From Delphinus delphis (taxonomy: Eukaryota; Chordata; Mammalia; Artiodactyla; Delphinidae): a stretch of 64,000 bases of DNA. Positions 5,411 through 64,000 of the stretch are shown here, one piece after another. The position numbers and the translations under genes were made by a program. Below the pieces are notes generated by a model. The model worked only from the letters and a program-made list of their open reading frames with translations. It ran no database searches and was not told where the DNA came from. The stretch's first letter is position 1. Every line of letters begins with the position of its first letter. The stretch covers positions 2,976,001 through 3,040,000 of the forward strand of contig NW_027192659.1 of the NCBI RefSeq assembly GCF_949987515.2, given 5' to 3'.

Positions 5411-5467
5411 TTCTTAATTGTTATGGGTTTGTCTTAGTGGGTCCTTTTCTTCTCTTGTGTTTCCCAC

Positions 5468-14124: not shown

Positions 14125-14138
14125 TATTTTGTTGTTCT

Positions 14139-14448: not shown

Positions 14449-14462
14449 TATTTTGTTGTTCT

Positions 14463-14514
14463 GCTAGTTTGTTTTAACCCAAGAAAATATTTTTTTAAAT
14501 ACAAAAAAACAAAA
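14463..14514. other. short AT-rich joint before the telomeric DNA
   Basis: About 50 bp of A/T-rich DNA with an oligo-A stretch (ATACAAAAAAACAAAATTAA) separate the SINE's right target duplication from the first telomere-like hexamers. It is the boundary of the flank with the satellite domain. Confidence 0.7.
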
Positions 14515-14760
14515 TTAAGCTAAGGGTAAGGACTAGGGTTTAGGGTAAGGTTTAGGGTTAGGGTACGGGTTAGGATTATTGTACGGCTTAGAGTATGGTT
14601 TAGGGTTATGGTTATGGTACGGGTTAGTGTTAGGGTACAGTTTAGGGTATGGCTATGGTTTAGTGTTAGGGTATGGGTTAAGGTATGGGTTAGTGTTAGG
14701 GTATGGGTTAGGATTCAGGTACGGTTTACGTTCAGGGTTATGGTTAGGTTTAGTGTATGG
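14515..14760 (+). repeat. degenerate telomeric repeat tract, (TTAGGG)n-derived
   Basis: The G-rich strand is the plus strand. About 40 hexamers include intact TTAGGG alongside variants such as TACGGG, TATGGG, TTAGTG and TTAGGA. They are not arranged in 168-bp units. Several short hexamer orders also occur in the satellite monomer: a run of five hexamers at 14687-14715 differs from monomer hexamers 19-23 at two bases. The tract passes without a break into the satellite, which enters at about its hexamer 19. Confidence 0.9.
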
Positions 14761-17700
14761 GTTAGTGTAAGCGTACGGGTTAGGATTAGGGGACGGGTGA
14801 GGGTCAGGCTTCGGGGAAGGGTTAGGGTTAGGGTTCGGGCTAGGGTTAGGGTTAGGGGACGGGGACGGTTTAGGGTCCAGGGGAGGGTACGACAACGCTT
14901 TAGGCTGAGCGTACGTGTGAGGGCATGGGTTAGTGTTAGCGCACGGGTTAGGATTAGGGGACGGGTTACGGTAAGACTTCGGGTAAGGGATAGGGTAAGG
15001 GTTCGGGCTAGGGTTAGGGTTAGGGGACGGGGACGGTTTAGGGTCCAGGTGAGGGTACGACAACGCTTTAGGCTGAGCGTACGTGTGAGGGCATGGGTTA
15101 GTGTTAGCGTACGGGTTAGGATTAGGGGACGGGTTAGGGTAAGGCTTCGGGTAAGGGTTCGGGCTAGGGTTAGGGGACGGGGACGGGGACGGTTTAGGGT
15201 CCAGGTGAGGGTACGACAACGCTTTAGGCTGAGCGTACGTGTGAGGACATGGGTTAGTGTTAGCGTACGGGTTAGGATTAGGGGACGGGTGAGGGTAAAG
15301 CTTCGGGGAAGGGTTAGGGTTAGGGTTCGGGCTAGGGTTAGGGTTAGGGGATGGGGACGGTTTCGGGTCCAGGTGAGGGTACGACAAAGCTTTAGGGGGA
15401 GCGTACGTGTGAGGGCGCGGGTTAGTGTTAGCGTACGGGTTAGGATTAGGGGACTGGTGAGTGTCAGGCTTCGGGGAAGGGTTAGGGTTAGGGTTCGGGC
15501 TAGGGTTAGGGTTAGGGGAAGGGGACGGTTTAGGGTCCAGGTGAGGGTACCACAACGCTTTAGGGGGAGTATACGTGTGAGGGTGTGGGCTACTGTTAGC
15601 GTACGGGTTACGATTATGGGACGGGTGAGGGTCAGACTTCGGGGAAGGGTTAGGGTTAGGGTTCGGGCTAGGGTTAGGGTAAGGGGACGGGGACGGTTTA
15701 GGGTCCAGGTGAGTGTACGACAACGCTTTAGGGGGAGCGTAACTGTGAGGGCGCTGGTTAGTGTTAGCCTACGGGTTAGGATTAGGGGCCGGGTGAGGGT
15801 CAGGCTTCGGGGCAGGGTTAGGGTTAGGGTTCGGGCTAGGGTTAGGGTTAGGGGACGGGGACGGTTTAGGGTCCAGGTGAGGGTACGACAACGCTTTAGG
15901 GGGAGCATACGTGTGAGGACATGGGTTAGTGTTAGCGAACGGGTTAGGATTAGGGGACGGTGAGGGTCAGGCTTTGGGAAGGGTTAGGGTTAGGGTTCGG
16001 GCTAGGGTTAGGGTTAGGGGACGGGGACGGTTTAGGGACCAGGTGAGGGTATGACAACGCTTTAGGGGGAGCGTACGTGTGAGGGCGCGGGTTAGTGTTA
16101 GAGTACGGGATAGGATTAGGGGACGGGTGAGGGTCAGGCTTCGGGGAAGGGTTAGTGTTAAGGTTCGGGCTAGGGTTAGGGTTAGGGGACGGGGACGGTT
16201 TCGGTTCCAGGTGAGGGTATGACAACGCTTTAGGGGGAGGGTACGTGTGGTGGCACGGGTTAGTGTTAGCGAACGGGTTGGGATTAGGGGACGGGTCAGT
16301 GTCAGTTTTCGGGGAAGTGTAAGGGTTAGGGTTCGGGCTAGGGTTAGGGTTAGGGGACGGGGACGGTTTAGGGTGCAGATGAGGGTACGACAACGCTTTA
16401 GGGACAGCGTACGTGTGAGGGCGCGGGTTAGTGTTAGCGTACGGGTTACGATTAGGGGATGGGTGAGGGTCAGGCTTCGGGAAAGGGTTAGGGTTAGGGT
16501 TCGGGCTAGGGTTAGGGTTAGGGGACGGGGACGGTTTAGGGTCCAGGGGAGGGTACGACAATGCTTTAGAGGAAGCGTACATGTGAGGGAGCTGCTTAGT
16601 GTTAGAGTACGGTTTAGGATTAGGGACGGGTGAGGGTCAGACTTCGGGGAAGGATTAGCGTTAGGGTTCGGGCTAGGGTTAGGGTAAGGGGACGGGGACG
16701 GTTTAGGGTCCAGGTGAGGGTAAGACAACGCTTTAGGGGAAGCGTATGTGTGAGGGTGCGGGTTACTGTTAGCGTACGGGTTAGGATAAGGGGACGGGTG
16801 AGGGTCAGGCTTCGGGGAAGGGTTAGGGTTAGGGTTCAGGCTACGGTTAGGGTTAGGGGACGGGGACTGTTTAGGGTCCAGGTGAGGGTACGACAACGCT
16901 TTAGGGGGAGCGTACATGTGAGGGAGTGGGTTAGTGTTAGGGAATGGGTTAGGATTAGGGTACGGGTGAGAGTCAGGCTTCGGGGAAGTGTTAGGGTTAG
17001 GGTTCGGGCTAGGGTTAGGGTTAGGGGACAGGGACGGTTTCGGTTCCAGGTGAGGGTACGACAACGCTTTAGGGGGTGTGTACGTGTGAGGGCGCGTGTT
17101 AGTGTTAGCGTACGGGTTAGGATTAGGGGACGGGTGAGGGTCAGGCTTCGGGGAAGGGTTAGGGTTAGAGTTCAGGCTAGGGATGGGGTTAGGGGACGGG
17201 GACGGTTTAGGGTCCAGGTGAGGGTACGACAACGCTTTAGGGGGAGTGTACGTGTGAGGGCGCGGGTTAGTGTTAGCGTACGGGTTAGGATTAGGGGACT
17301 GGTGAGGGTCAGGCTTCGGGGAAGGGTTAGGGTTAGGTTTCGTGCTAGGGTTACTTTTAGGGGACGGGGACGGTTCAGTGTCCAGGGGAGGGTACGACAA
17401 CGCTTTAGGGGGAGCATACGTGTGATTGCGTGGATCAGTGTTAGCGTACGGTTTAGGATTACGGGACGGGTGAGGGTCAGACTTCGGGAAATGCTTAGGG
17501 AAAGGTTTCGGGCTAGGGTAAGGGTTAGGGGACGGGGACGATTTAGGGTCCAGGGGAGGGTACGACAACGCTTTAGGGGGAGCGTACGTGTGAGGGCGCT
17601 TGTTAGTATTAGCGTATGGGTTAGGATTAGGGCACGGGTGAGGGTTAGGCTTCGGAGAGGGGTTAGGGTTAGGGTTCGGGCCAGGGTTACGGTTAGGGGG

Positions 17701-18540
17701 CGGGGACGGTTTAGGGTCCAGGGGAGGGTACGACAACGCTTTAGGGGGAGCGTACGTGTGAGGGCGCGGGTTTCTGTTAGCGTACGGGTTAGTATTAGGG
17801 GACGGGTGAGGGTCAGAATTCGGGGAAGGTTTAGGGTTAGGGTTCGGGCTAGGGTAAGGGTTAGGGGACGGGGACGGTTTAGGGTCCAGGGGAGGGTACG
17901 ACAACGCTTTAGGGGGAGCGTACGTGTGAGGGCGCGGGTCAGTGTTAGCGTACGTGTTAGGATTAGGGGACGGGTGAGGGTCAGGCTTCTGGGAAGGGTT
18001 AGGGTTAGGGTTCGGGCTAGGGTTAGGGTTAGGGGACGGGGACGGTTTAGGGTCCAGGTGAGGGTACGACAACGCTTTAGGGGGAGCGTAGGTGTGAGGG
18101 CGCGGGTTAGTGTTAGCGTACGGGTTAGGATTAGGGGACGGCTGAGGGTCAGGCTTCGGGGAAAGATTAGGGTTATGGTTTGGGCTAGGTTTAGGGTTAG
18201 GGGACGGGGACGGTTTAGGGTCCACGTGAGGGTACGACAACACTTTAGGGGGAGCGTACGTGTGAGGACGTGGGTTAGTGTTAGCGTACGGGTCAGGATT
18301 ATGGGACGGGTGAGGGTCAGGCTTCGGGGAAGGGTTAGCGTTAGGGTTCGGGGTAGGGTTAGGGTTAGGGGACGGGGACAGTTTAGGGTCCAGGTGAGGG
18401 TACGACAACGCTTTAGGGGGAGCATAGGTGTGAGGGCGTGGGGTAGTGTTAGCGTACGGGTTAGGATTAGGGGACTGGTGAGTGTCAGGCTTCGGGGAAG
18501 GATTAGGGTTAGGGTTCGGGCTAGGGTTAGGGTTAGGGGA

Positions 18541-21500
18541 CGGGGACGGTTTATGGTCCAAGGGAGGGTACGACAACGCTTTAGGGGGAGCGTAGGTGTG
18601 AGGGCGCGGGTTAGTGTTAGCGTACGGGTTAGGATTAGGGGACGTGTGAGGGTCAGGCTTCGGGGAAGGCAAAGGGTTAGGGTTCGGGCTAGGGTTAGGT
18701 TTAGGGGACGGGGACGGTTTAGGGTCCAGGTGAGGGTATGACAACGCTTTAGGGGTGCATAGGTGTGAGGGCGCGGGTTAGTGTTAGCGTACGGGTTAGG
18801 ATTAGGGGACGGGTGAGGGTCAGGCTTCGGGGAAGGTTTAGGGTTAGGGTTCGGGCTAGGGTTAGGGTTAGGGGACGGGGACGGTTTAGTGTCCAGGGGA
18901 GGGTACGACAACGCTTTAGCGGGAGCGTAGGTGTGAGGGCCTGGGATAGTGTTAGTGTACGTGTTAGGATTAGGGGACGGGTGAGGGTCAGGCTTCGGGG
19001 AAAGGTTAGGGTTAAGGTTCGGGCTAGGGTTAGGGTTGGGGACAGGGACGGTTCAGGGTACACGTGAGGTTACGACAACGCTTTAGGGGGAGCGTACGTG
19101 TGAGGGCGCGGGTTATTGTTAGCGTACGGGTTAGGATTAGGGGATGGGTGAGGGTCAGGCTTCGGGGAAGGGTTAGGGTTAGGGTTCGGGCTAGGGTTAG
19201 GGTTAGGGGACGGGGACGGTTTAGGGTGCAGGTGAGGGTATGACAACGCTTTAGGGGTACGTAGGTGTGAGGGCGCGGGTTAGTGTTAGAGTACGGGTTA
19301 GGATTAGGGGACGGGTGAGGGTCAGTCTTCGGGGAAAGATTTGGGTTAGGGTTCGGTCTAGGGTTAGGGTTAGGGGACGGGGACGGTTTAGGGTCCAGGG
19401 GAGGGTACGACAATGCTTTAGGGGGAGCGTACGTGTGAGGGCGTGGGTTAGTGTTAGCGTACTGGTCAGCATTATGGGACGGGTGAGGGTCAGGCTTTGG
19501 GGAAGGGTTAGGGTTTGGGTTCGGGCTAGGGTTAGGGTTAGGGGACGGGGACGGTTTAGGGTCCAGGTGAGGGTACGACAACACTTTAGGGGGAGCGTAC
19601 GTGTGAGGGCGTGGGTTAGTGTTAGCGTACGGGTCAAGATTAGGGGACGGGTGAGGTTCAGGCTTCGCGGAAGGGTTAGGTTTAGGGTTCGGGCTAGGGT
19701 TAGGGTTAGGGGACGGGGACGGTTTAGGGTCCAGGTGAGGGTACGACAACGCTTTAGGGGGAGCATAGGTGTGAGCGCGCGGGTTAGTGTTAGCGTACGG
19801 GTTAGGATTAGGGGACGGGTGAGGGTCAGGCTTCGGGGAAGGGTTAGGGTTAGGGTTCGGGCTAGGGTTAGGGTTAGGGGACGGGGACGGTTCAGGGTAC
19901 ACGTGAGGTTCCGACAACGCTTTAGGGGGAGCGTAGGTGTGAGGGCGCGGGTTAGTGTTAGCGTACGGGTTAGCATTACGGGACGGGTGAGGGTCAGACT
20001 TCGGGGAAGGGTTAGGTTTAGGGTTCAGGCTAGGGTTAGGGTTAGGGGACGGGGACGGTTTAGGGTCCAGGTGAGGGTACGACAACGCTTTAAGGGGAGC
20101 GTACGTGTGAGGGCGCGGGTTAGTATTAGCGTACGGGTTAGGATTAGGACAAGGGTGAGGGTTAGGCTTCTGAGAAGGGTTAGGGTTAGGGTTCGGGCCA
20201 GGGTAACGGTTAGGGGACGGGGATGGTTTAGGGTCCAGGGGAGGGTACGACAACGCTTTAGGGGGAGCGTACGTGTGAGGGTGCGGGTTAGTGTTAGCGT
20301 ACGGGTTAGTATTAGGGGACGGGTGAGGGTCAGACTTCGGGGAAGGTTTAGGGTTAGGGTTCGGGCTAGGGTAAGGGTTAGGGGATGGGGACGGTTTAGG
20401 GTCCAGGAGAGGGTACAACAACGCTTTAGGGGGAGCGTACGTGTGAGGGCGCGGGTTAGTGTTAGCGTACGGGTTAGGATTAGGGGACGGTTGAGGGTCA
20501 GGCTTTGGGGAAGGGTTAGGGTTAGGGTTCGGGCTAGGGTTAGGGTTAGGGGACGGAGACGGTTCAGGGTACACGTGACGTTACGACAACGCTTTAGGGG
20601 GAGCGTACGTGTGAGGGCGCGGGTTAGTGTTAGCGTACGGGTTAGGATTAGGGGACGGGTGAGGGTCATGCTTCGGGGAAGGGATAGGGTTAGGGTTCGG
20701 GCTAGGGTAAGGGTTAGGGGACGGGGACGGTTTGGGTCCAGGGGAGGGTAAGACAACGCTTTAGGGGGAGCGTACGTGTGAGGGCACTGGTTAGTGTTAG
20801 CGTACGGGTTAGGATTAGGGGACGGGTGAGGGTCAGGCTTCGGGGAAGGGATAGGGTTAGGGTTCGGGCTAGGGTAAGGGTTAGGGGACGGGGACGGTTC
20901 AGGGTCCAGGGGAAGGTATGACAACGCTTTAGGGGGAGCGTACTTGTGAGGGCGCGGGTTAGTGTTAGCGTACGGGTTAGGATTAGGGTCGGGTGAGCGT
21001 CAGGCTTCGGGGAAAGGTTAGGGTTAGGTTTCGGGCTAGGGTTAGGGTTAGGGGACGGGGACGGTTTAGGGTCCAGGTGAGGGTACGACAACGCTTTAGG
21101 GGGAGCGCAGGTGTGAGGGCGCGGGTTAGTGTTAGCGTACGGTTTAGGATTAGGGGACGGGTGAGGGTCAGGCTTCAGGGAAGGGTTAGGGTTAGGGTTC
21201 GGGCTAGGGTTAGGGTTAGGGAACGGGGACAGTTTAGGGTCCAGGTGAGAGTACGACAACGCTTTAGGGGGAGCGTAGGTGTGAGGGCGCGGTTTAGTGT
21301 TAGCGTACGGGTTAGGATTAGGGGACGGGTGAGGGTCAGGCTTTTGGGAAGGGTTAGGGTTAGGGTTCGGGCTAGGGTTAGGGTTAGGGGACGGGGACGG
21401 TTTAGGGTCCAGGTGAGGGTACGACAACGCTTTAGGGGGAGCGTACGTGTGAGGGCGCGGGTTAGTGTTAGCGTACGGGTTAGGATTAGGGGACAGGTGA

Positions 21501-21950
21501 GTGTCAGGCTTCGGGGAAGGGTTAGGGTTCGGGCTAGGGTTAGGGTTAGGGGACGGGGACGGTTTATGGTCCAGGGGAGGGTACGACAACGCTTTAGGGG
21601 GAGCGTAGGTGTGAGGGCGTGGGTTAGTGTTAGCGTACGGGTTAGGATTAGGGGACGTGTGAGGGTCAGGCTTCGGGGAAGGCATAGGGTTAGGGTTCGG
21701 GCTAGGGTTAGGGTTAGGGGTCGGGGACGGTTTAGGGTCCAGGTGAGGGTATGACAACGCTTTAGGGGTGCATAGGTGTGAGGGCGCGGGTTAGTGTTAG
21801 CGTACGGGTTAGGATTAGGGGACGGGTGAGGGTTAGGCTTCGGGGAAGGGTTAGGGTTAGGGTTCGGGCTAGGGTTAGGGTTAGGGGACGGGGATGGTTT
21901 AGGGTCCAGGGGAGGGTACGACAACGCTTTAGGGGGAGCGTATGTGTGAG
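18541..21950 (+). repeat. 3.0-kb higher-order duplication in the proximal satellite
   Basis: The segment near 18541-18910 recurs at 21554-21923 with an offset of 3,013 bp, 18 monomers less 11 bp. Shared rare markers are TTTATGGTCCA, GGACGTGTGAGG and CTTTAGGGGTGCATAGG. How far the match extends on each side was judged by eye, so the limits are approximate. Confidence 0.6.
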
Positions 21951-23941
21951 GGCGTGGGATAGTGTTAGCCTACGGGTTAGGATTAGGGGACGGGTGAGAG
22001 TCAGGCTTCGGGGAAGGGTTAGGGTTAGGGTTCGGGCTAGGGTTAGGGTTAGGGGACGGGGACGGTTTAGGGTCCAGGTGAGGGTATGACAACGCTTTAG
22101 GGGTGCGTAGGTGTGAGGGCGCGGGTTAGTGTTAGAGTACGGGTTAGGATTAGGGGACGGGTGAGGGTCAGGCTTCGGGGAAGTGTTAGGGTTAGGGTTC
22201 GGGCTAGGGTTAGGGTTAGGGGACGGGGACGGTTTAGGGTCCAGGTGAGGGTATGACAACGCTTTAGGGGGAGTGTAGGTGTGAGGGCGCGGGTTAGTGT
22301 TAGCGTACGTGTTAGGATTAGGGGAGGGGTGAGGGTCAGGCTTCGGGGAAGTTTTAGGGGTAGGGTTCGGGCCAGGGTTAGAGTTAGGGGACGGGGACGG
22401 TTTAGGGTACAGGTGAGGGTACGACAACGCTTTTGGGGGAGCGTAGGTTTGAGTGCGCAGGTTAGTGTTAGCGTACGGGTTAGGATTAGGGGACGGGTGA
22501 GGGTCAGGCTTCGGGGAAGGGTTAGGGTTAGGGTTCGGGCTAGGGTAAGGGTTAGGGGACGGGGACGGTGTAGGGTCCAGGGGAAGGTACGACAACGCTT
22601 TAGGGGGAGCGTACTTGTGAGGGCATGGGTTAGTGTTAGCGTACGGGTTAGGATTAGGGGACGGGTGAGTGTCAGGCTTCGGGGAAAGGTTAGGGTTAGG
22701 GTTCGGGCTAGGGTTAGAGTTAGGGGACGGGGACGGTTTAGGGTCCAGGTGAGGGTACGACAACGCTTTAGGGGGAGCGGACGTGTGAGGGCGGGGGTTA
22801 GTGTTAGCGTACGGGTCAGGATTAGGGGACGGGTGAGGTTCAGGCTTCGGGGAAGGGTTAGGGTTAGGGTTCGGGCTAGGGTTAGGGTTAGGGGACGGGG
22901 ACGGTTTAGGGTCCAGGGGAGGGTACGACAACGCTTTAGGGGGAGCGCAGGTGTGAGGGCACGGGTTAGTGTTAGCGTACGGTTTAGGATTAGGGGACGG
23001 GTGAGGGTCAGGCTTCGGGGAAGGGTTAGGGTTAGGGTTCGGGCTAGGGTTAGGGTTAGGGAACGGGGACAGTTTAGGGTCCAGGTGAGGGTACGACAAC
23101 GCTTTAGGGGGAGCGTAGGTGTGAGGGCACGGGTTAGTGTTAGCGTACGGTTTAGGATTAGGGGACGGGTGAGGTCAGGCTTTTGGGAAGGGTTAGGCTT
23201 AGGGTTCGGGCTAGGGTTAGGGTTAGGGGACGGGGACGGTTTAGGGTCCAGGTGAGGGTACGACAACGCTTTAGGGGGAGCGTACGTGTGAGGGCGCGGG
23301 TTAGTGTTAGCGTACGGGTTAGGATTAGGGGACGTGTGAGGGTCAGGCTTCGGGGAAGGCATAGGGTTAGGGTTTGGGCTAGGGTTAGGGTTAGGGGACG
23401 GGGACGGTTTAGGGTCCAGGGGAGGGTATGACAACGCTTTTGTGGTGCATAGGTGTGAGGGCGCGGGTTAGTGTTAGCGTACGGGTTAGGATTAGGGGAC
23501 GGGTGAGGGTCAGGCTTCGGGGAAGGGTTAGGGTTAGGGTTCGGGCTAGGGTTAGGGTTAGGGGACGGGGACGGTTTAGGGTCCAGGTGACGGTACGACA
23601 ACGCTTTAGGGGGAGCGTAGGTGTGAGGGCGTGGGATAGTGTTAGCGTACGGGTTAGGATTAGGGGACGGGTGAGGGTCAGGCTTCGGGGAAGGGTTAGG
23701 GTTAGGGTTCGGGCTAGGGTTAGGGTTAGGGGACGGGGTCGGTTCAGGGTACACGTGAGGTTACGACAACGCTTTACGGGGAGCGTACGTTTGAGGGCGG
23801 GGTTTAGTGTTAGCGTTCGGGTTAGGATTAGGGGACGGGTGAGGGTCAGGCTTCAGGGAAGGGTTAGGGTTAGGGTTCGGGCTAGGGTTAGGGTTAGGGG
23901 ACGGGGACGGTTTAGGGTGCAGGTGAGGGTATGACAACGCT

Positions 23942-24948
23942 TTAGGGGTGCGTAGGTGTGAGGGCGCGGGTTAGTGTTAGAGTACGGGTTAGGATTAGGG
24001 GACGGGTGAGGGTCAGGCTTCGTGGAAGGGTTAGGGTTAGGGTTCGGGCTAGGGTTAGGGTTAGGGGACGGGGACGGTTTAGGGTCCAGGGGAGGGTACG
24101 ACAACGCTTTAGGGGGAGCGTAGGTGTGAGGGCGCGGCTTAGTGTTAGCGTACGGGTTAGGATTAGGGGACGGGTGAGGGTCAGGCTTCGGGGAAGGGTT
24201 AGGGTTAGGGTTCGGGCTAGGGTTAGGGTTAGGGGACGGGGACGGTTTAGGGTGCAGGTGAGGGTATGACAACGCTTTAGGGGTGCGTAGGTGTGAGGGC
24301 GCGGGTTAGTGTTAGAGTACGGGTTAGGATTAGGGGACGGGTGAGGGTCTGGCTTCGGGGAAAGATTTGGGTTAGGGTTCGGGCTAGGGTTAGGGTTAGG
24401 GGACGGGGACAGTTTAGGGTCCAGGTGAGGGTACGAAAACGCTTTAGGGGGAGCGTACGTGTGAGTGCGTGGGTTAGTGTTAGCGTACTGGTCAGGATTA
24501 GGGGACGGGTGAGAGTCAGGCTTCGGGGAAGGGTTAGGGTTGGGGTTCGGGCTAGGGTTAGGGTTAGGGGACGCGGACGGTTTAGGGTCCAGGGGAGGGT
24601 ATGACAACGCTTAAGGGGGAGCGTACGTGTGAGGGTTCGGGTTAGTGTTAGCGTACGGGTTAGGATTAGGGGACGGGTGAGGGTCAGGCTTCGGGGAAGG
24701 GTTAGGGTTAGGGTTCGGGCTAGGGTTAGGGTTAGGGGACGGGGACGGTTTAGGGTCCAGGGGAGGGTACGACAACGCTTTAGGGGGAGCGTAGGTGTGA
24801 GGGCGTGGCTTAGTGTTAGAGTACGGGTTAGGATTAGGGGACGGGTGAGGGTCAGGCTTCGGGGAAGGGTTAGGTTTAGGGTTCGGGCTAGGGTTAGGGT
24901 TAGGGGACGGGGACGGTTTAGGTTCCAGGTGAGGGTATGACAACGCTT
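23942..24948 (+). repeat. dimeric (~335 bp) higher-order repeats
   Basis: Three copies of a two-monomer unit start at the TTTAGGGGTGCGTAGG-type marker: 23941, 24276, about 24611 (variant) and the next at 24947. Spacings are 335, 335 and 336 bp. The one-base shortfall against 336 comes from the marker's single-base loss, which shifts reading frame once per dimer. Confidence 0.75.
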
Positions 24949-49500: not shown

Positions 49501-49710
49501 TTAGGGTTAGGGGACGGGGACGGTTTAGGGTCCAGGGGAGGGTACGACAACGCTTTAGGGGGAGTGTACGTGTGAGTGCGCGGGTTAGTGTTAGCGTACT
49601 GGTTAGGATTTCGGGACGGGTGAGGGTCAGGCTTCGGGGAAGTGTTAGGGTTAGGGTTCGGGCTAGGGTTAGGGTTAGGGGAGGGGACGGTTTAGGGTCC
49701 AGGTGAGGGT
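40506..49710 (+). repeat. large tandem duplication, copy B (seven monomers longer)
   Basis: The offset to copy A is 8,040 bp until about 43255, 8,370 bp from about 43590, 8,705 bp from about 46526, and 9,209 bp from about 48209. The steps of 330, 335 and 504 bp are two, two and three monomers, with small deletions in the first two. Copy B therefore gained about seven monomers, or copy A lost them, after the block was duplicated. Homology to copy A ends near 49710, at a GCATTTG marker monomer. Confidence 0.8.
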
Positions 49711-52700: not shown

Positions 52701-52922
52701 TAGGGTCCAGGGGAGCGTACGACAACGCTTTAGGGGGAGCGTACGTGTGAGGGCGTGGGTTAGTGTTAGCGTACGGGTTAGGATTAGGGGACGCGTGAGG
52801 GTCAGGCTTCGGGGAAGGGTTAGGGTTAGGGTTCGTGCTAGGGTTAGGGTTAGCGGACGGGGACGGTTTAGGGTCCAGGGGAGGGTACGACAACGCTTTA
52901 GGGGGAGCGTACGTGTGAGGGC
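48238..52922 (+). repeat. 2.34-kb higher-order repeat, two tandem copies
   Basis: The block starting near 48398 repeats at 50740, an offset of 2,342 bp (14 monomers less 10 bp). A triple GGGGACGGGGACGGGGAC run, a TCCGGGGAGG monomer pair and the GGGGAGGGGACGG variant all recur at this spacing. From about 50.2 kb the offset becomes 2,174 bp, so the first copy has one extra monomer (about 50216-50390). The first copy overlaps the end of large copy B. Confidence 0.8.
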
Positions 52923-53744
52923 GCGTGTTAGTGTTAGCGTACGGGTTAGGATTAGGGGACGGGTGAGGGTCAGGCTTCGGGGAAGGGTTAGGGTTAGGGT
53001 TCGGGCTAGGGTTAGGGTTAGGGTACGGGGACGGTTTAGGGTCCAGGTGAGGGTATGACAACGCTTTAGGGGGAGCGTACGTGTGAGGGCGCGGGTTGGT
53101 GTTAGCGTACGGGTTAGGATTACGGGACGGGTGAGGGTCAGGCTTCGGGGAAGGGTTAGGGTTAGGGTTCGGGCTAGGGTTAGGGTTAGGGGACGGGGAC
53201 GGTTTAGGGTCCAGGGGAGGGTACGACAACGCTTTAGGGGGAGCGTACGTGTGAGGGCGCGGGTTAGTGTTAGCGTACGGGTTAGGATTAGGGGACGGGT
53301 GTGGGTCAGGCTCTGCGGAAGGGTTAGGGTTAGGGTTCGGGCTAGGGTTAGGGTTAGGGAATGGGGACGGTTTATGGTCCAGGTGAGGGTACGACAACGC
53401 TTTAGGGGGAGCGTACGTGTGAGGGCGCGGGTTAGTGTTAGCGTACGGGTTAGGAATAGGGGACAGGTGAGGGTCAGGCTTCGGGGAAGGGTTAGGGTTA
53501 GGGTACGTGCTAGGGTTAGGGTTAGGGGACGGGGACGGTTTAGGGTCCAGGGGAGTGTACGACAACGCTTTAGGAGGAGCGTACGTGTGAGGGCGCGGGT
53601 TAGTGTTAGCGTACGGGTTAGGATTAGGGGACGGGTGAGGGTCAGGCTTCGGGGAAGGGTTAGGGTTAGGGTTCGTGCTAGGGTTAGGGTTAGGGGACGG
53701 GGACGGTATAGGGTCCAGAGGAGGGTACAACAACGCTTTAGGGG

Positions 53745-55900
53745 GAGCGTACATGTGAGGGCGCGGGTTAGTGTTAGCGTACGTGTTAGGATTAAGGGAC
53801 TGGTGAGGGTCAGGCTTCGGGGAAGGGTTAGGGTTAGGGTACGGGCTAGGGTTAGGGATAGGGGACGGGGACGGTTTAGGGTCCATGTGAGGGTACGACA
53901 ACGCTTTAGGGGGAGCGTACGTGAGAGGGCGCGGGTTAGTGTTAGCGTACGGGTTAGGATTAGGGGACGGGTGAGGGTCAGGCTTCAGGGAAGGGTTAGG
54001 GTTAGGGTTCGGGCTAGGGTTAGGGTTAGGGGACGGGGACGGTTTAGGGTCCAGGGGAGGGTACGACAACGCTTTAGGGGGAGCGTACGTGTGAGGGCGC
54101 GGGTTAATGTTAGCGTACGGGTTAGGATTAGGGGACGGGTGAGGGTCAGGCTTCGGGGAAGGGTTAGGGTTAGGGTTCGTGCTAGGGTTAGGGTTAGGGG
54201 ACGGGGACGGTTTAGGGTCCAGGGGCGGGTACGACAACGCTTTAGGGGGAGCGTACGTGTGAGGGCGCGGGTTAGTGTTAGCGTACGGGTTAGGATTAGG
54301 GGACGGGTGAGGGTCAGGCTTCGGGGAAGGGTTAGGGTTAGGGTTCGTGCTAGGGTTAGGGTTAGGGGACGGGGACGGTTTAGGGTCCATGTGAGGGTAC
54401 GAAAACGCTTTAGGGGGAGCGTACGTGTGAGGGCACGGGTTAGTGTTAGCGTATGGTTTAGGATTATGGGACAGGTGAGGGTCAGTCTTCGGGGAAGTGT
54501 TAGGGTTAGGGTACGGGCTAGGGTTAGGGATAGGGGACGGGGACGGTTTAGGGTCCATGTGAGGGTACGACAACGCTTTAGGGGGAGCGTACGTGTGAGC
54601 GCGTGGGTTAGTGTTAGCGTACGGGTTAGGATTAGGGGACGGGTGAGGGTCAGGCTTCGGGGAAGCGTTAGGGTTAGGGTTCGGGCTAGGGTTAGGGTTA
54701 GGGGACGGGGACGGTTTAGGGTCCAGGGGAGGGTACGACAACGCTTTAGGGGGAGAGTACGTTTGAGGGCGCGGGTTAGTTTTAGCGTACGGGTTAGGAT
54801 TAGGGGACGGGTGAGGGTCAGGCTTCGGGGAAGGGTTAGGGTTAGGGTTCGGGCTAGGGTTAGCGTTAGGGGACGGGGACGGTTTAGGGTTCAGGGGACG
54901 GTACGACAACGCTTTAGGGGGAGCGTACGTGTGAGGGCGCGGGTTAGTGTTAGCGTACGGGTTAGGATTAGGGGACGGGTGAGGGTCAGGCTTCGGGGAA
55001 GGGTTAGGGTTAGGGTTCGTGCTAGGGTTAGGGTTAGGGGACGGGGACGGTTTAGGGTCCAGGGGAGGGTACGACAACGCTTTAGGGGTAGCGTACGTGT
55101 GAGGGCGCGGGTTAGTGTTAGCGTACGGGTTAGGATTAGGGGACGGGTGAGGGTCAGGCTTCGGGGAAGGGTTAGGCTTAGGGTTCGTGCTAGGGTTAGG
55201 GTTAGGGGACGGGGACGGTTTAGGGTCCAGGGGCGGGTACGACAACGCTTTAGGGGGAGCGTACGTGTGAGGGCGCGGGTTAGTGTTAGCGTACGGGTTA
55301 GGATTAGGGGACGGGTGAGGGTCAGGCTTCGGGGAAGGGTTAGGGTTAGGGTTCGTGCTAGGGTTAGTGTTAGGGGACGGGGACGGTTTAGGGTCCATGT
55401 GAGGGTACGAAAACGCTTTAGGGGGAGCGTACGTGTGAGGGCACGGGTTAGTGTTAGCGTATGGTTTAGGATTATGGGACAGGTGAGTGTCAATCTTCGG
55501 GGAAGTGTTAGGGTTAGGGTACGGGCTAGGGTTAGGGATAGGGGACGGGGACGGTTTAGGGTCCATGTGAGGGTACGACAACGCTTTAGGGGGAGCGTAT
55601 GTGTGAGCGCGTGGGTTAGTGTTAGCGTACGGGTTAGGATTAGGGGACGGGTGAGGGTCAGGCTTCGGGGAAGCGTTAGGGTTAGGGTTCGGGCTAGGGT
55701 TAGGGTTAGGGGACGGGGACGGTTTAGGGTCCAGGGGAGGGTACGACAACGCTTTAGGGGGAGCGTACGTGTGAGGGCGCGGGTTAGTGTTAGCGTACGG
55801 GTTAGGATTAGGGGACGGGTGAGGGTCAGGCTTCGGGGAAGGGTTAGGGTTAGGGTTCGTGCTAGGGTTAGGGTTAGGGGACGGGGACGGTTTAGGGTCC
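53745..55900 (+). repeat. 1,008-bp (6-monomer) higher-order repeat
   Basis: Rare markers recur exactly 1,008 bp apart. GTATGGTTTAGGATTATGGG is at 54451 and 55459, and each is preceded by a monomer with GTACGAAAACGC. The period is six monomers with no net indel. Partial similarity to 53745-54450 suggests a third, diverged copy. Confidence 0.75.
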
Positions 55901-58900
55901 AGGGGAGGGTACGACAACGCTTTAGGGGTACCGTACGTGTGAGGGCGCGGGTTAGTGTTAGCGTACGGGTTAGGATTAGGGGACGGGTGAGGGTCAGGCT
56001 TCGGGGAAGGGTTAGGCTTAGGGTTCGTGCTAGGGTTAGGGTTAGGGGACGGTGACGGTTTAGGGTCCAGGGGAGGGTACGACAACTCATTAGGGGGAGC
56101 GTACGTGTGAGGGCGCGGGTTAGTGTTAGCGTACGTGTTACGATTAGGGGACGGGTGAGGGTCAGGCTCTGGGGAAGGTTTAGGGTTAGGGTTCAGGCTA
56201 GGGTTAGGGGACGGGGACGGTTTAGGGTCCAGGTGAGGGTACGACAACGCTTTAGGGGGAGCGTACGTGTGAGGGCGCGGGTTAGTGTTAGCGTACGGGT
56301 TAGGAATAGGGGACAGGTGAGAGTCAGGCTTTGGGGAGGGTTTAGGGTTAGGGTTCGGGCTAGGGTTAGGGTTAGGGGACGGGGACGGTTTAGGGTCCAG
56401 AGGAGGGTACGACAACGCTTTAGGGGGAGCGTAGGTGTGAGGGCGCGGATTAGTGTTAGCGTACGGTTTAGGATTAGGGGACTGGTGAGAGTCAGGCTTC
56501 GGGGAAGGCTTAGGGTTAGGGTTAGGGCTAGGGTTAGGGTTCACGGGACGGGGACAGTTTAGGGTCCAGGGGAGGGTACGACAACGCTTTAGGGGGAGCG
56601 TACGTGTGAGGGCGCGGGTTAGTGTTAGCGTACGGGTTAGGATTAGGGAACGGGTGAGGGTCTGGCTTCGGGGAAGGCTTAGGGTTAGGGTTCGGGCTAG
56701 GGTTAGAGTTAGGGGACGGGGACGGTTTAGGGTCCAGGGGAGTGTACGACAACGTTTTAGGGGGAGCGTACGTGTGAGGGCACGGGTTAGTGTTAGCGTA
56801 CGGATTAGGATTAGGTGACGGGTTAGGGTCAGGCTTCGGGGAAGGCTTAGGGTGAGTATTCGGGTTAGGGTTAGGGTTAGGGGACGGGGAAGGTTTAGGG
56901 TCTAGGGGAGGGTACGACAACGCTTTAGGGGGAGCGTACGTGTGAGGGCGTGGGTTAGTGTTAGCGTACGGGTTAGGATTAGGGGACGCGTGAGTGTCAG
57001 GCTTCGGGGAAGGGTTAGGGTTAGGGTTCGGACTAGGGTTAGGGTTAGGGGACAGGGACGGTTTAGGGTCCAGGGGAGGGTACGACAACGCTTTAGGGGG
57101 AGCGTACGTGTGAGGGCGTGGGTTAGTGTTAGCGTACGGGTTAGTATTAGGGGACGGGTGAGGGTCAGGCTCTGGGGAAGGGTTAGGGTTAGGGTTCGGG
57201 CTAGGGTTAGGGTTAGGGGATGGGGACGGTTTAGGGTCCAGGTGAGGGTACGACAACGCTTTAGGGGGAGTGTACGTGTGAGGGCGCGGGTTAGTGTTAG
57301 CGTACGGGTTAGGATTAGGAGACGGGTGAGGGTCAGGCTTCGGGGAAGGGTTAGGGTTAGGGTTCCGGCTAGGGTTAGGGTTAGGGGACGGGGACGGTTT
57401 AGGGTCCAGGGGAGGGTACGACAACGCTTTAGGGGGAGCGAACGTGTGAGTGCGCGGGTTAGTGTTAGCGTACGGGTTAGGATTAGGGGACGGGTGAGGG
57501 TCAGGCTTCGGGGAAGGGTTAGGGTTAGGGTTCGTGCTAGGGTTAGGGTTAGGGGACGGGGACGGTTTAGGGTCCAGGGGAGGGTACGACAACGCTTTAG
57601 GGGGAGCGTACGTGTGAGGGCGCGGGTTGGTGTTAGCGTACGGGTTAGGATTAGGGGATGGGTGAGGGTCAGGCTTCGGGGAAGGCTTAGGGTTAGGGTT
57701 CGGGCTAGGGTTAGGGTTAGGGGACGGGGACGGTTTAGGGTCCAGAGGAGGGTATGACAACGCTTTAGGGGGAGCGTACGTGTGAGTGCGCGGGTTGGTG
57801 TTAGCGTACGGGTTAGGATTAGGGGACGGGTGAGGTTCAGGCTTCGGGGAAGGGTTAGGGTTGGGTTCGTGCTAGGGTTAGGGTTAGGGGACGGGGACGG
57901 TTTAGGGTCCAGGGGAGGGTACGACAACGCTTTAGGGGTAGCGTACGTGTGAGGGCGCGGGTTAGTGTTAGCGTACGGGTTAGGATTAGGGGACGGGTGA
58001 GGGTCAGGCTTCGGGGAAGGGTTAGGGTTAGGGTACGGGCTAGGGTTAGGGATAGGGGACGGGGACGGTTTAGGGTCCATGTGAGGGTACGACAACGCTT
58101 TAGGGGGAGCGTACTTGAGACGGCGCGGGTTAGTGTTAGCGTACGGGTTAGGATTAGGGGACGGGTGAGGGTCAGGCTTCAGGGAAGGTTTAGGGTTAGG
58201 GTTCGGGCTAGGGTTAGGGTTAGGGGACGGGGACGGTTTAGGGTCCAGGGGAAGGTACGACAACGCTTTAGGGGGAGCGTACGTGTGAGGGCGCGGGTTA
58301 GTGTTAGCGTACGGGTTAGGATTAGGGGACGGGTGAGGGTCAGGCTTCGGGGAAGGGATAGGGTTAGGGTTCGTGCTAGGGTTAGGGGACGGGGACGGTT
58401 TAGGGTCCAGGGGAGGGTACGACAACGCTTTAGGGGGAGCGTACGTGTGAGAGCGCGGGTTAGTGTTAGCGTACGGTTTAGGATTAGGGGACGGGTGAGG
58501 GTCAGGCTTCGGGGAAGGGTTAGGGTTAGGGTTCGTGCTAGGGTTAGGGTTAGGGGACGGGGACGGTTTAGGGTCCATGTGAGGGTACGACAACGCTTTA
58601 GGGGGAGCGTACGTGTGAGGGCACGGGTTAGTGTTAGCGTACGGTTTACGATTATGGGACGGGTGAGGGTCAGGCTTCGGGGAAGTGTTAGGGTTAGGGT
58701 ACGGGCTAGGGTTAGGGATAGGGGACGGGGACGGTTTAGGGTCCATGTGAGGGTACGACAACGCTTTAGGGGGAGCGTACGTGTGAGGGCGCGGGTTAGT
58801 GTTAGCGTACGGGTTAGGATTAGGGGACGGGTGAGGGTCAGGCTTCGGGGAAGGGTTAGAGTTAGGGTTCGGGCTAGGGTTAGGGTTAGGGGACGGGGAC

Positions 58901-60959
58901 GGTTTAGGGTCCAGGGGAGGGTACGACAACGCTTTAGGGGGAGCGTACGTGTGAGGGCGCGGGTTAGTGTTAGCGTACGGGTTAGGATTAGGGGACGGGT
59001 GAGGGTCAGGCTCTGGGGAAGGTTTAGGGTTAGGGTTCAGGCTAGGTTTAGGGGACGGGGACGGGGACGGTTTAGGGTCCATGTGAGGGTACGACAACGC
59101 TTTAGGGGGAGCGTACGTGTTAGGGCACGGGTTAGTGTTAGCGTACGGTTTAGGATTATGGGACGGGTGAGGGTCAGGCTTCGGGGAAGTGTTAGGGTTA
59201 GGGTACAGGCTAGGGTTAGGGATAGGGGACGGGGACGGTTTAGGGTCCATGTGAGGGTACGACAACGCTTTAGGGGGAGCGTACGTGTGAGGGCGCGGGT
59301 TAGTGTTAGTGTACGGGTTAGGATTAGGGGACAGGTGAGGGTCAGGCTTCGGGGAAGGGTTAGGGTTAGGGTTCGGGCTAGGGTTAGGGTTAGGGGACGG
59401 GGACGGTTTAGGGTCCGGGGGAGGGTACGACAACGCTTTACGGGGAGTGTAGGTGTGAGGGCGTGGGTTAGTGTTAGCGTACGGGTTAGGATTACGGGAC
59501 GGGTGAGGGTCAGGCTTCGGGGAAGGGCTAGGGTTAGGGTTCGTGCTAGGGCTGGGTTAGGAGACGGGGATGGTTTAGGGTCCAGGGGAGGGTACGACAA
59601 CGCTTTAGGGGGAGCGTACGTGTGAGGGCGCAGGTTAGTGTTAGCGTACGGGTTAGGATTAGGGGACGGGTGAGGGTCAGGCTTCGGGGAAGGCTTAGGG
59701 TTAGGGTTAGGGCTAGGGTTAGGGTTACGGGACGGGGACGGTTTAGGGTCCAGGGGAGGGTACGACAACGCTTTAGGGGGAGCGTACGTGTGAGGGCGCG
59801 GGTTAGTGTTAGCGTACGGGTTAGGATTAGGGTACGGGTGAGGGTCAGGCTTCGGGGAAGGCTTAGGGTTAGGGTTCGGGCTAGGGTTAGAGTTAAGGGA
59901 CGGGGACGGTTTAGGGTCCAGGGGAGGGTACGACAACGTTTTAGGGGGAGCGTACGTGTGAGGGCACGGGTTAGTGTTAGCGTACGGATTAGGATTAGGT
60001 GACTGGTTAGGGTCAGGCTTCGTGGAAGGCTTAGGGTTAGGATTCGGGCTAGGGTTAGGGTTAGGGGACGGGGACGGTTTAGGGTCCAGGTGAGGGTACG
60101 ACAACGCTTTAGGGAGAGCATACGTGTGAGGTCGCGGGTTAGTGTTAGCGTACGGGTTAGGACTAGGGGACGGATGAGGGTCAGGCTTCGGGTAAGGGTT
60201 AGGGTTAGGGTTCGGGCTAGGGTTAGGGTTAGGGGATGGGGACGGTTTAGGGTCCAGGGGAGGGTACAACAATGCTTTAGGGGGAGCGTACGTGTGAGGG
60301 CGCGGGTTACTGTTAGCGTACGGGTTAGGATTAGGGGACGGGTGAGAGTCAGGCTTCGGGGAAGGGTTAGGGTTAGGGTTCGGGCTAGGATTAGGGTTAG
60401 GGGACGGGGACGGTTTAGGGTCCAGGGGAGCGTACGACAACGCTTTAGGGGGAGCGTACGTGTGAGGGCGTGGGTTAGTGTTAGCGTACGGGTTAGGATA
60501 AGGGGACGCGTGAGGGTCAGGCTTCGGGGAAGGGTTAGGGTTAGGGTTCGTGCTAGGGTTAGGGTTAGCGGACGGGGACGGTTTAGGGTCCAGGGGAGGG
60601 TACGACAACGCTTTAGGGGGAGCGTACGTGTGAGGGCGCGTGTTAGTGTTAGCGTACGGGTTAGGATTAGGGGACGGGTGAGGGTCAGGCTTCGGGGAAG
60701 GGTTAGGGTTAGGGTTCGGGCTAGGGTTAGGGTTAGGGGACGGGGACTTTTTAGGGTCCAGGGGAGGGTACGACAACGCTTTAGGGGGAGCGTAGGTGTG
60801 AGGGCGCGGGTTGGTGTTAGCGTACGGGTTAGGATTAGGGGACGGGTGAGGGTCAGACTTCGGGGAAGTGTTAGGGTTAGGGTTCGGGCTAGGGTTAGGG
60901 TTAGGGGACGGGGACGGTTTAGGGTCCAGGGGAGGGTACGAAAACGCTTTAGGGGGAGC

Positions 60960-63900
60960 GTACGTGTGAGGGCGCGGGTTAGTGTTAGCGTACGGGTTAG
61001 GATTAGGGGACGGGTGAGGGTCAGGCTCTGCGGAAGGGTTAGGGTTAGGGTTCGGGCTAGGGTTAGGTTTAGGGGATGGGGACGGTTTATGGTCCAGGTG
61101 AGGGTACGACAACGCTTTAGGGGGAGCGTATGTGTGAGGGCGCGGGTTAGTGTTAGCGTACTGGTTAGGATTAGGAGACGGGTGAGGGTCAGGCTTCGGG
61201 GAAGGGTTAGGGTTAGGGTTCGGGCTAGGGTTAGGGTTAGGGGACGGGGACGGTTTAGGGTCCAGGTGAGGGTACGACAACGCTTTAGGGGGAGCGTAGG
61301 GTTGAGGGCGCGGGTTAGTGTTAGCGTACGGGTTAGGATTAGGGGACGGGTGATGGTCAGGCTTTGGGGAAGGGTTAGGGTTAGGGTTCGGGCTAGGGTT
61401 AGGGTTAGGGGATGGGGACGGTTTAGGGTCCAGGGGAGGGTACAACAACGCTTTAGGGGGAGCGTACGTGTGAGGGCGCATGTTAGTGTTAGCGTATGGG
61501 TTAGGATTAGGGGACGGGTGAGGGTCAGTCTTCGGGGAAGGGTTAGGGTTAGGGTTCGTGCTAGGGTTAGGGTTAGGGGACGGGGACGGTTTAGGGTGCA
61601 GGGGAGGGTACGACAACACTTTAGGGGGAGCGTACGTGTGAGGGCGCGGGTTAGTGTTAGCGTACGGGTTAGGATTAGGGGATGGGTGAGGGTCAGGCTT
61701 CGGGGAAGGCTTAGGGTTAGGGTTCGGGCTAGGGTTAGGGTTAGGGGACGGGGACGGTTTAGGGTCCAGGGGAGGGTACGACAATGCTTTAGGGGGAGAG
61801 TACGTGTGAGGGCGTGGGTTAGTGTTAGCGTACGGGTTAGGATTAGGGGACGGGTGAGGGTCAGGCTTCGGGGAAGGGTTAGGGTTAGGGTTCGGGCTAG
61901 GGTTAGGGTTAGGGGACGGGGACGGTTTAGGGTGCAGGGGAGGGTACGACAACGCTTTAGGGGTAGCGTACGTGTGACGGCGCGGGTTAGTGTTAGCGTA
62001 CGGGTTAGGATTAGGGCACGGGTGAGGGTCAGGCTTCGGGGAAGGGTTAGGGTTAGGGTTCGTGCTAGGGTTAGGGTTAGGGGACGGGGACGGTTTCGGG
62101 TCCAGGGGAGGGTACGACAACGCTTTAGGGGGAGCGTACGTGTGAGGGCGCGGGTTAGTGTTAGCGTACGGGTTAGGATTAGGGGACGGGTGAGGGTCAG
62201 GCTTCGGGGAAGGGTTAGGGTTAGGGTTCGTGCTAGGGTTAGGGTTAGGGGACGGGGACGGTTTAGGATCCAGGGGAGGGTACGACAACGCTTTAGGGGG
62301 AGCGTACGTGTGAGGGCGCGGGTTAGTGTTAGCGTACGGGTTAGGATTAGGGGACGGGTGAGGGTCAGGCTCTGGGGAAGGTTTAGGGTTAGGGTTCAGG
62401 CTAGGTTTAGGGGACGGGGACGGTTTAGGGTCCATGTGAGGGTACGACAACGCTTTAGGGGGAGTGTACGTGTGAGGGCACGGGTTAGTGTTAGCGTACG
62501 GTTTAGGATTATGGGACGGGTGAGGGTCAGGCTTCGGGGAAGTGTTAGGGTTAGGGTACAGGCTAGGGTTAGGGATAGGGGACGGGGACGGTTTAGGGTC
62601 CATGTGAGGGTACGACAACGCTTTAGGGGGAGCGTACGTGTGAGGGCGCAGGTTAGTGTTAGCGTACGGGTTAGGATTAGGGGACGGGTGAGGGTCAGGC
62701 TTCGGGGAAGGGTTAGTGTTAGGGTTCGGGCTAGGGTTAGGGTTACGGGACGGGGACGGTTTAGGGTCCAGGGGAGGGTACGACAACGCTTTAGGGGGAG
62801 CGTAGGTGTGAGGGCGCGGGTTAGTGTTAGCGTACGGGTTAGGATTAGGGGACGGGTGAGGGTCAGACTTCGGGGAAGTGTTAGGGTTAGGGTTCGGGCT
62901 AGGGTTAGGGTTAGGGTACGGGGACGGTTTAGGGTCCAGGTGAGGGTATGACAACGCTTTAGGGGGAGCGTACGTGTGAGGGCGCGGGTTGGTGTTAGCG
63001 TACGGGTTAGGATTACGGGACGGGTGAGGGTCAGGCTTCGGGGAAGGGTTAGGGTTAGGGTTCGGGCTAGGGTTAGGGTTAGGGGACGGGGACGGTTTAG
63101 GGTCCAGGGGAGGGTACGACAACGCTTTAGCGGGAGCGTACGTGTGAGGGCGCGGGTTAGTGTTAGCGTACGGGTTAGGATTAGGGGACGGGTGAGGGTC
63201 AGGCTCTGCGGAAGGGTTAGGGTTAGGGTTCGGGCTAGGGTTAGGGTTAGGGGATGGGGACGGTTTATGGTCCAGGTGAGGGTACGACAACGCTTTAGGG
63301 GGAGCGTATGTGTGAGGGCGCGGGTTAGTGTTAGCGTACTGGTTAGGATTAGGAGACGGGTGAGGGTCAGGCTTCGGGGAAGGGTTAGGGTTAGGGTTCG
63401 GGCTAGGGTTAGGGTTAGGGGACGGGGACGGTTTAGGGTCCAGGTGAGGGTACGACAACGCTTTAGGGGGAGCGTAGGTGTGAGGGCGCGGGTTAGTGTT
63501 AGCGTACGGGTTAGGATTAGGGGACGGGTGAGGGTCAGGCTTTGGGGAAGGGTTAGGTTTAGGGTTCGGGCTAGGGTTAGGGTTAGGGGATGGAGACGGT
63601 TTAGGGTCCAGGGGAGGGTACGACAACGCTTCAGGGGGAGCGTACGTGTGAGGGCGCATGTTAGTGTTAGCGTACGGGTTAGGATTAGGGGACGGGTGAG
63701 GGTCAGTCTTCGGGGAAGGGTTAGGGTTAGGGTTCGTGCTAGGGTTAGGGTTAGGGGACGGGGACGGTTTAGGGTACAGGGGAGGGTACGAAAACGCTTT
63801 AGGGGGAGCGTACGTGTGAGGGCGCGGGTTAGTGTTAGCGTACGGGTTAGGATTAGGGGATGGGTGAGGGTCAGGCTTCGGGGAAGGCTTAGGGTTAGGG

Positions 63901-64000
63901 TTCGGGCTAGGGTTAGGGTTAGGGGACGGGGACGGTTTAGGGTCCAGGGGAGGGTACGACAATGCTTTAGGGGGAGAGTACGTGTGAGGGCGTGGGTTAG
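60960..64000 (+). repeat. 2.18-kb (13-monomer) higher-order repeat, second copy cut by window edge
   Basis: CTCTGCGGAAGG is at 61026 and 63204, and AATGCTTTAGGGGGAGAG is at 61783 and 63961. Both pairs are 2,178 bp apart, 13 monomers less 6 bp. Other rare variants (TTTATGGTCCA, GGGCGCATGTTAG) recur in the same order between them. Confidence 0.8.

What the first reader, a model, noticed from the sequence alone, without database searches (positions are those of the whole stretch)
14761..64000. A 168-bp satellite that is exactly 28 fossil telomere hexamers
The monomer length is 6 x 28, and in one phase nearly every hexamer is GGGTTA with one to three changes. This indicates that a stretch of about 28 degenerate telomere repeats was frozen and then amplified as a unit to nearly 50 kb. 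Telomere-like blocks are known at subtelomeres and fusion sites, but I do not know of this higher-order unit. It is my candidate for the undescribed system in the window.
Basis: partly seen in the sequence, partly recalled or inferred. Interest (0 to 1): 0.9.

Follow-up and report, generated by a model that had tools for sequence, protein, structure and literature searches.

The report
Telomere-derived satellite capping dolphin chromosomes
A 168-letter DNA repeat built from 28 altered copies of the telomere motif sits at or just inside most of the chromosome ends sampled in the common dolphin, pointing the same way as the telomere, and it has been copied around the genome together with one piece of neighbouring DNA.

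Summary
A 168-bp tandem repeat runs from 14,761 to the window end (294 near-full monomers). In one phase its consensus matches (GGGTTA)28 at 121 of 168 positions; the maximum of 2,000 shuffles was 78. The host assembly fits Delphinus delphis mDelDel1.2. Genome-wide I extrapolate 56-81 Mb. I read all 44 chromosome-scaffold ends, plus points inside the telomere-bearing ones: the satellite lies at or just inside 28, G-strand outward at 28 of 28. Three gap-free junctions (two distinct breakpoints) pass into pure TTAGGG without losing the hexamer register. The window's 14.4-kb flank, edged by a 240-bp degenerate telomeric zone, recurs at 98-100% identity; two capped searches together show 62 places, one orientation per contig. 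So one founder array probably spread with its flank by exchange between ends. 'Mutated fossil' is doubtful: 40 of 47 changes from GGGTTA are transversions, which fits a variant-rich telomere seed better. The window's own array lies on an unplaced contig and is not terminal there. Telomere-related terminal satellites are already cited for baleen whales, and spacer-plus-satellite caps are known in apes, so I call it a new variant of a known kind. Any function is inferred.

The parts
1..14518 (+). Proximal flank: L1-rich segment, part of a module of at least 14.4 kb duplicated together with the satellite (a 'spacer'-like segmental duplication)
   Evidence: window:101-400 recurs at 40 scored places at about 99.7-100%; paired with the array junction at offsets of 14,346-14,375 bp at 18 sites; C20:50001-50500 matches window 4549-5046 at 99.2%
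14519..14760 (+). Transition zone: about 40 degenerate telomere hexamers, same phase as the array, not 168-periodic, more like pure telomere than like the satellite
   Evidence: Ungapped 72.7% to telomere vs 65.3% to the best satellite register; gapped scores 199 vs 113-125; part of the junction found at 40 scored places at 98-100%
14761..64000 (+). 168-bp satellite array (28 GGGTTA-like hexamers per monomer), G-rich strand on +; continues past the window to between C35:3,350,500 and 3,400,001

Best explanation
This is a telomere-derived subterminal satellite of the common dolphin. Shown: it is made of 28 GGGTTA-like hexamers; it lies at or just inside 28 of 44 chromosome-scaffold ends, on the telomere's strand; at three gap-free junctions it passes into telomere in the same hexamer register; arrays on different chromosomes are nearly as alike as monomers within one array; and it travels with one shared 14.4-kb flank. 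Inferred: a variant-rich proximal telomere tract beside that flank acquired a 168-bp tandem duplication; unequal exchange enlarged and homogenised it; exchange between chromosome ends then copied flank plus array, keeping telomere polarity at every end sampled. Inferred and weakest: at the ends it works as a heterochromatic cap that buffers unique DNA from terminal loss and exchange, and whose GGGTTA doublets give telomerase, or recombination with a telomere, an in-register start when an end breaks back into the array.
For: Composition and phase. Position: of 44 chromosome-scaffold ends read, 21 end in the satellite, 9 in telomere, 6 in the common cetacean satellite, 4 in N, 4 in other sequence; 7 of the 9 telomere ends have satellite further in (C2, C6, C10, C14, C16 left at 20 kb, with assembly gaps between at all but C10; C7 and C13 right). 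Polarity is outward at 28 of 28. Junctions at C7 right, C13 right and C10 left are gap-free, keep the phase and switch inside a GGGTTA hexamer. Monomer identity 0.939 between (4,449 pairs from 30 stretches outside C35, three ends sampled twice, rows with 80 or more gaps dropped) against 0.951 within (165 pairs). Shared flank; 15 of 15 contigs with more than one module have one orientation. The proximal tenth of the window array is most diverged (0.941, against 0.962-0.967 from the fifth tenth on), as exchange theory predicts for an array edge. Telomere-run searches: 18 sites after hexamers 9-10, 13 after 13-14, 2 after 28, 0 after 2-3, 0 after 17-18.
Against: No functional data at all. The window's own array is on an unplaced contig (C35), with non-telomeric sequence at 3.40-3.45 Mb and common cetacean satellite at 3.5 Mb beyond it, so it is not terminal as assembled. 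Modules also sit inside chromosome scaffolds (C1 121.4, C2 95.8, C7 96.2 and 96.6 Mb). 16 of 44 ends showed no satellite at the points read. No right-end module is among the 40 places scored. C7 right and C13 right share one breakpoint, so only two distinct junctions are proven. Telomere-run sites cluster inside arrays (three each on C143, C163 and C418) and one is interstitial (C10 24.19 Mb), so internal slippage makes such runs too. The hexamer 2-3 position also offers a GGGTTA next (hexamer 4) yet gave 0 sites, so 'any GGGTTA will do' is not supported. Columns forming YTAGGGTTR (a shelterin-type site, recalled) are no better conserved than others (p = 0.99).
Confidence: 0.65

Rival explanations
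1. It is the toothed-whale form of the already described terminal, telomere-related satellite of baleen whales, so the family is old news and only the assembled sequence is new.
For: [quoted passage not shown] 1993 and Arnason & Widegren 1989; PMC5088352 cites Adegoke for TTAGGG in satellite DNA (passages).
Against: The host fits a dolphin, not a baleen whale. I recall a unit of about 422 bp for the baleen satellite, against 168 here. The original paper and its sequence are not held, so no comparison was possible.
Confidence: 0.3
2. It is a selfish or neutral satellite: telomere-like composition and end location are by-products of where unequal exchange is tolerated, with no capping or buffering role.
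For: No higher-order structure, edge-diverged array, no extra conservation of telomere-protein-like motifs. Unequal and ectopic exchange alone could make everything observed.
Against: Nothing tested argues against it; strict polarity is also expected from exchange between ends.
Confidence: 0.5
3. Each chromosome end amplified its own 168-bp unit independently from its own old telomere.
For: Telomeres exist at every end, so raw material is everywhere.
Against: One consensus (three differences between the pooled stretches outside C35 and this array) and a shared proximal junction and flank at 98-100% wherever the capped searches scored one.
Confidence: 0.02
4. An unrelated G-rich minisatellite that resembles telomere by chance.
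For: 47 of 168 positions differ from telomere and the changes are mostly transversions, unlike ordinary decay.
Against: 121 of 168 matches in one phase against a shuffle maximum of 78; telomere strand and register continue through real junctions; hexamer-step length changes.
Confidence: 0.03
5. Interstitial modules on C1, C2 and C7 are scaffolding errors and the satellite is purely terminal.
For: The C1 block abuts a 200-N gap; the assembly has 968 gaps (PMC12022549); many modules lie on unplaced contigs.
Against: C2 and C7 each carry two modules at these places in one orientation; the window itself joins flank and array with no N.
Confidence: 0.35

Closest known systems
Terminal DNA satellite of whalebone whales (Adegoke, Arnason & Widegren 1993; seen only through citing passages)
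   Same: Cetacean, terminal on chromosomes (title), cited as involving telomere-like TTAGGG
   Different: Baleen whales; unit length recalled as about 422 bp; sequence not available to compare
Great-ape and siamang subterminal heterochromatic caps (pCht 32-bp or alpha satellite with segmental-duplication spacers; PMC12758386, PMC12058530, passages read)
   Same: Subterminal satellite associated with a recurrent duplicated segment; closely similar copies on non-homologous chromosomes; modules hundreds of kb apart
   Different: The ape satellites are not described in those passages as built of telomere hexamers; spacer about 32-57 kb there, at least 14.4 kb here; here common cetacean satellite also lies near the modules; methylation not testable
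Interstitial/heterochromatic telomeric sequences (het-ITS)
   Same: Telomeric repeats in heterochromatin blocks
   Different: Here the telomeric repeats are variant hexamers fixed into a 168-bp unit, not (TTAGGG)n
Common cetacean satellite (about 1,579-bp unit)
   Same: Neighbouring blocks in this genome (L013-L016, L103)
   Different: Unrelated sequence and unit length
Proximal telomere variant repeats (TVR)
   Same: Mixed TTAGGG variants, e.g. TTCGGG interspersed in the C16 left telomere
   Different: TVRs are not organised into a fixed 28-hexamer repeating unit

Membership tests
Satellite DNA | Long head-to-tail array of similar monomers, highly repeated in the genome | tested here: met
   294 monomers, mean consensus frequency 0.960; 173,086 exact copies of one 30-mer genome-wide, extrapolating to 56-81 Mb
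Subtelomeric (subterminal) satellite | Lies immediately inside telomeres | tested here: met
   Gap-free junctions at C7R, C13R, C10L; satellite at or inside 28 of 44 chromosome ends (classified 29, 38, 44, 63). The window's own array is not terminal in its contig
Telomere-derived repeat | Hexamer phase, strand and register of TTAGGG | tested here: met
   121/168 in one phase; outward polarity at 28 of 28 ends; register kept at three junctions
Baleen whale terminal satellite | Same unit length and sequence | not testable with these tools
   Original paper and sequence not held; 422 bp is recalled
Baleen whale terminal satellite | Occurs in Mysticeti | tested here: not met
   G000 fits Delphinus delphis mDelDel1.2 (630 scaffolds; 15 of 21 printed autosome lengths equal to two decimals, 6 smaller by about 0.01 Mb); presence in baleen whales not testable
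Common cetacean satellite | About 1,579-bp unit | tested here: not met
   Unit is 168 bp; no satellite words in L013-L016
Ape-type subterminal cap with spacer | Recurrent segmental-duplication spacer associated with the satellite | tested here: met
   Offset of about 14.36 kb, constant within 15 bp, at 18 paired sites; 62 modules on 42 contigs as a lower bound
Ape-type subterminal cap with spacer | Spacer sandwiched inside continuous arrays of the same satellite | tested here: inconclusive
   In C35 and on C8 left the inner neighbour sampled is common cetacean satellite, not the 168-bp array
Ape-type subterminal cap with spacer | Hypomethylated spacer in methylated satellite | not testable with these tools
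   No methylation data
Named satellite in Dfam/Repbase | Consensus match | not testable with these tools
   No repeat library held; Rfam, an RNA library, gave 0 matches

The most novel reading that the evidence does not exclude
A mammalian subterminal satellite that is a primable telomere reserve: its GGGTTA doublets let telomerase, or recombination with a telomere, restart an end in register wherever the array breaks. It would be a standing self-healing cap, evolved from telomere variant repeats and spread as a directional spacer-plus-array module in parallel with the ape caps.
Probability: 0.17. Interest if true: 0.85.

Novelty: new variant of a known kind. Interest (0 to 1): 0.6.

Why it matters
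It gives a concrete case of a chromosome's own telomere sequence turning into a satellite of tens of megabases, with the edge zone, the spread module and satellite-telomere junctions all readable in one assembly. It also shows outside primates an arrangement resembling the ape subterminal caps (directional array plus recurrent duplicated segment, homogenised between ends), so ideas on what such caps do can be tested in an independent lineage.

Tried and rejected
Rejected: independent origin at each end (shared junction); a sub-repeat of 18, 24 or 84 bp as building block (hexamer-permutation p = 0.08, 0.06 and 0.12, best-lag p = 0.47); higher-order repeats of monomers; special conservation of telomere-protein-like motifs; the host as killer whale (chromosome 1 is 212.7 Mb there); the transition zone as merely decayed satellite (it scores higher against pure telomere, although a weak trace of satellite hexamer order remains: p = 0.0005 ungapped, 0.01 gapped, hexamer vocabulary p = 0.018). 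A G-to-T excess within the array comes partly from a few frequent shared variants and I draw nothing from it. Rfam gave nothing.

Not answered: what lies at the distal edge of this array genome-wide (L101 query), one further control junction (hexamers 23-24), and a mitochondrial-gene search; the machine was busy.
Full report
What is there. From 14,761 to the window end lies a tandem array of a 168-bp unit. A wrap-around alignment gave 295 pieces; 294 near-full monomers were kept and one 7-base stub dropped; mean consensus frequency 0.960. In one of six phases the consensus agrees with (GGGTTA)28 at 121 of 168 positions; the next phase has 78, and the maximum of 2,000 shuffles is 78. Six of 28 hexamers are exact, 21 differ at 1-3 positions, one at 5. 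Length variants often step in hexamers: 21 of 25 monomers that depart by 2 or more depart by 6 or 12, while 40 monomers are one base short. There is no sub-unit beyond the hexamer by permutation and no higher-order repeat. The + strand of the array carries 409 non-overlapping G4-type motifs, the - strand none.

Whose genome. The held assembly has 630 contigs and chromosome lengths that fit Delphinus delphis mDelDel1.2 (PMC12022549; passages read), found by searching three of the lengths. Of 21 printed autosome lengths, 15 equal those of C1-C21 to two decimals and 6 (7, 9, 11, 15, 17, 21) are larger by about 0.01 Mb; the printed total is 0.13 Mb larger. The common cetacean satellite (about 1,579-bp period) fills all of the other C35 places sampled inward of the window and the one at 3.5 Mb (L013-L016, L103).

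How much. One 30-mer of the monomer has 173,086 exact copies (75,978 forward, 97,108 reverse; reversed control 0). From its density in 40 kb of the C35 array and in 37 sampled stretches of terminal arrays (L106 and the junction loci left out), this extrapolates to 81 and 56 Mb, 2-3% of the assembly. This is an extrapolation, not a count.

Where. I read 500-1,000 bases at the ends of C1-C22 (10 kb at C1 left), classified and by BLAST. Left ends: satellite 8, telomere 6, N 4, common satellite 3, other 1. Right ends: satellite 13, telomere 3, common satellite 3, other 3. Of the nine telomere ends, seven have satellite further in: C2, C6, C10, C14, C16 left at 20 kb, and C7, C13 right. C4 left and C2 right do not at the points read. 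At all 28 satellite-bearing ends the G-rich strand points outward. Assembly gaps separate telomere from satellite at C2, C6, C14 and C16 left. Sixteen ends showed no satellite at the points read; four of these (C3, C5, C7, C12 left) have a module 0.24-1.6 Mb further in. The window's own array is different: C35 is unplaced, and beyond the array come non-telomeric sequence (3.40-3.45 Mb) and common satellite (3.5 Mb).

Junctions. Three are gap-free. C7 right and C13 right leave the satellite after hexamer 10 (GGGGAA) and C10 left after hexamer 28 (GGGCAC); all go straight into pure TTAGGG with no shift of the six-base register at the switch. The first two share a breakpoint, so they may be copies of one event. 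Exact searches for two satellite hexamers followed by five and a half pure repeats found 18 sites after hexamers 9-10, 13 after 13-14, 0 after 2-3 and 0 after 17-18 (where the satellite has no GGGTTA next). A search with one hexamer (28) and four and a half repeats found 2. Several sites look internal: three each on C143, C163 and C418, and C10 at 24.19 Mb. So slippage at GGGTTA doublets also occurs inside arrays. In the window array the longest pure run is three hexamers (9 of 1,054 runs).

The edge and the module. Before the array lie 242 bases of telomere-like hexamers in the same phase that do not follow the 168-bp order. They fit pure telomere better than satellite, ungapped (72.7% vs 65.3%) and gapped (score 199 vs 113-125). 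A weak trace of satellite order remains (p = 0.0005 and 0.01), and they share more hexamer types with the monomer than a site-independent null (12 vs 6.3, p = 0.018). The 300 bases of this junction recur at 40 scored places at 98-100% identity (2,369 candidates at first look, 40 scored). The piece 14.36 kb further out recurs at 40 scored places at about 99.7-100% (1,861 candidates, 40 scored). Eighteen sites are in both lists with offsets of 14,346-14,375 bp; the others were seen by one query only. Together they give 62 modules on 42 contigs, a lower bound; all 15 contigs with more than one module have a single orientation. The median spacing of neighbouring modules is 0.61 Mb over 19 spacings (one of 96 Mb dropped), an upper bound, since unseen modules may lie between. 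The eight left-end modules (C3, C5, C7, C8, C12, C15, C17, C22) are all on the minus strand, array outward; no right-end module is among the 40 scored. Modules also occur at C1 121.4, C2 95.8 and C7 96.2-96.6 Mb; whether these are real interstitial blocks or scaffolding is open, since the C1 block abuts a 200-N gap.

Homogenisation. Monomers from 30 stretches outside C35 (120 monomers; rows with 80 or more gaps dropped) are 0.939 identical between stretches and 0.951 within. Their consensus differs from the window's at three positions (124, 134, 155). By a 9-base motif around 134, G prevails at 19 and A at 7 of 26 ends with the motif, and A throughout the C35 samples, so this array belongs to the rarer subtype. 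Inside the window the proximal tenth is most diverged.

Origin. Only 7 of 47 consensus differences from telomere are transitions, and 11 of 66 in the zone, against the two-thirds or so I would expect of ordinary decay (recalled expectation). Eleven of 28 hexamers carry A-to-C at the last position. The C16 left telomere shows how such a seed could look: its TTAGGG is interspersed with TTCGGG. I therefore prefer a variant-rich proximal telomere tract as the seed over a mutated fossil.

Mechanism, with status. Shown: composition, polarity, register at three junctions, shared module, interchromosomal similarity. Inferred with good support: a single founder, then spread by exchange between ends. 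Inferred only: a buffer or cap role and in-register re-capping. A purely selfish satellite explains the data as well.

Prior knowledge. Passages in PMC3975639 and PMC5088352 cite Adegoke et al. 1993 for telomeric repeats as part of satellite DNA, and the cited title gives terminal localisation in whalebone whales; I saw neither that abstract nor its text. Ape subterminal caps with spacers: passages of PMC12758386 and PMC12058530. The Vertebrate Genomes preprint PMC13320880 reports 3,429 satellite families with a cluster near 171 bp (passages); this unit may be in its supplement, which I could not open. Passages of PMC5615363, PMC10815390, PMC7763226 and PMC10153287 and the outline and passages of PMC10039322 named no such unit. 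None of the 10 full-text searches listed, by title or shown abstract, a paper on a 168-bp cetacean satellite; none of 17 listed papers held both 'cetacea' and '168 bp'. That is one open library, not all print.

Noticed in passing
L013 587-658 (C35 near 3.50 Mb): The common cetacean satellite unit (about 1,579 bp) contains a 72-bp palindrome, self-complementary at 70 of 72 positions, and present in many other copies.
   Followed up: partly
L032 (C9 left end) and L049 (C4, 20 kb from left end): A second GC-rich subtelomeric sequence, 76% identical over 243 bp between the two ends, where the 168-bp satellite was not seen at the points read.
   Followed up: no
L036 and L059 (C16 left telomere): Telomere interspersed with TTCGGG variants (18 of 165 and 56 of 247 units), not seen in the other telomere stretches counted.
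   Followed up: partly
window 7600-13700: About five diverged direct repeats at roughly 1.2-kb spacing (61-93% to reference copies), with partial matches at 68-72% to dispersed, probably L1, sequence; maybe an older L1-derived satellite inside the duplicated flank.
   Followed up: no
window 2922-3428, minus strand: Reverse-transcriptase fragment (PF00078, E 9.6e-05, below the curated cut-off), fitting an L1 remnant.
   Followed up: no
L121 (C2 right, 30 kb in) and L090 (C22 left, 200 kb in): A related minisatellite (AGGGACAGTGTCAGGGCCTGAG-like), 75-80% alike in both orientations.
   Followed up: no
L099 (C2:500001-500500): Looks like an immunoglobulin heavy variable segment by eye (recalled motif; not searched).
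   Followed up: no
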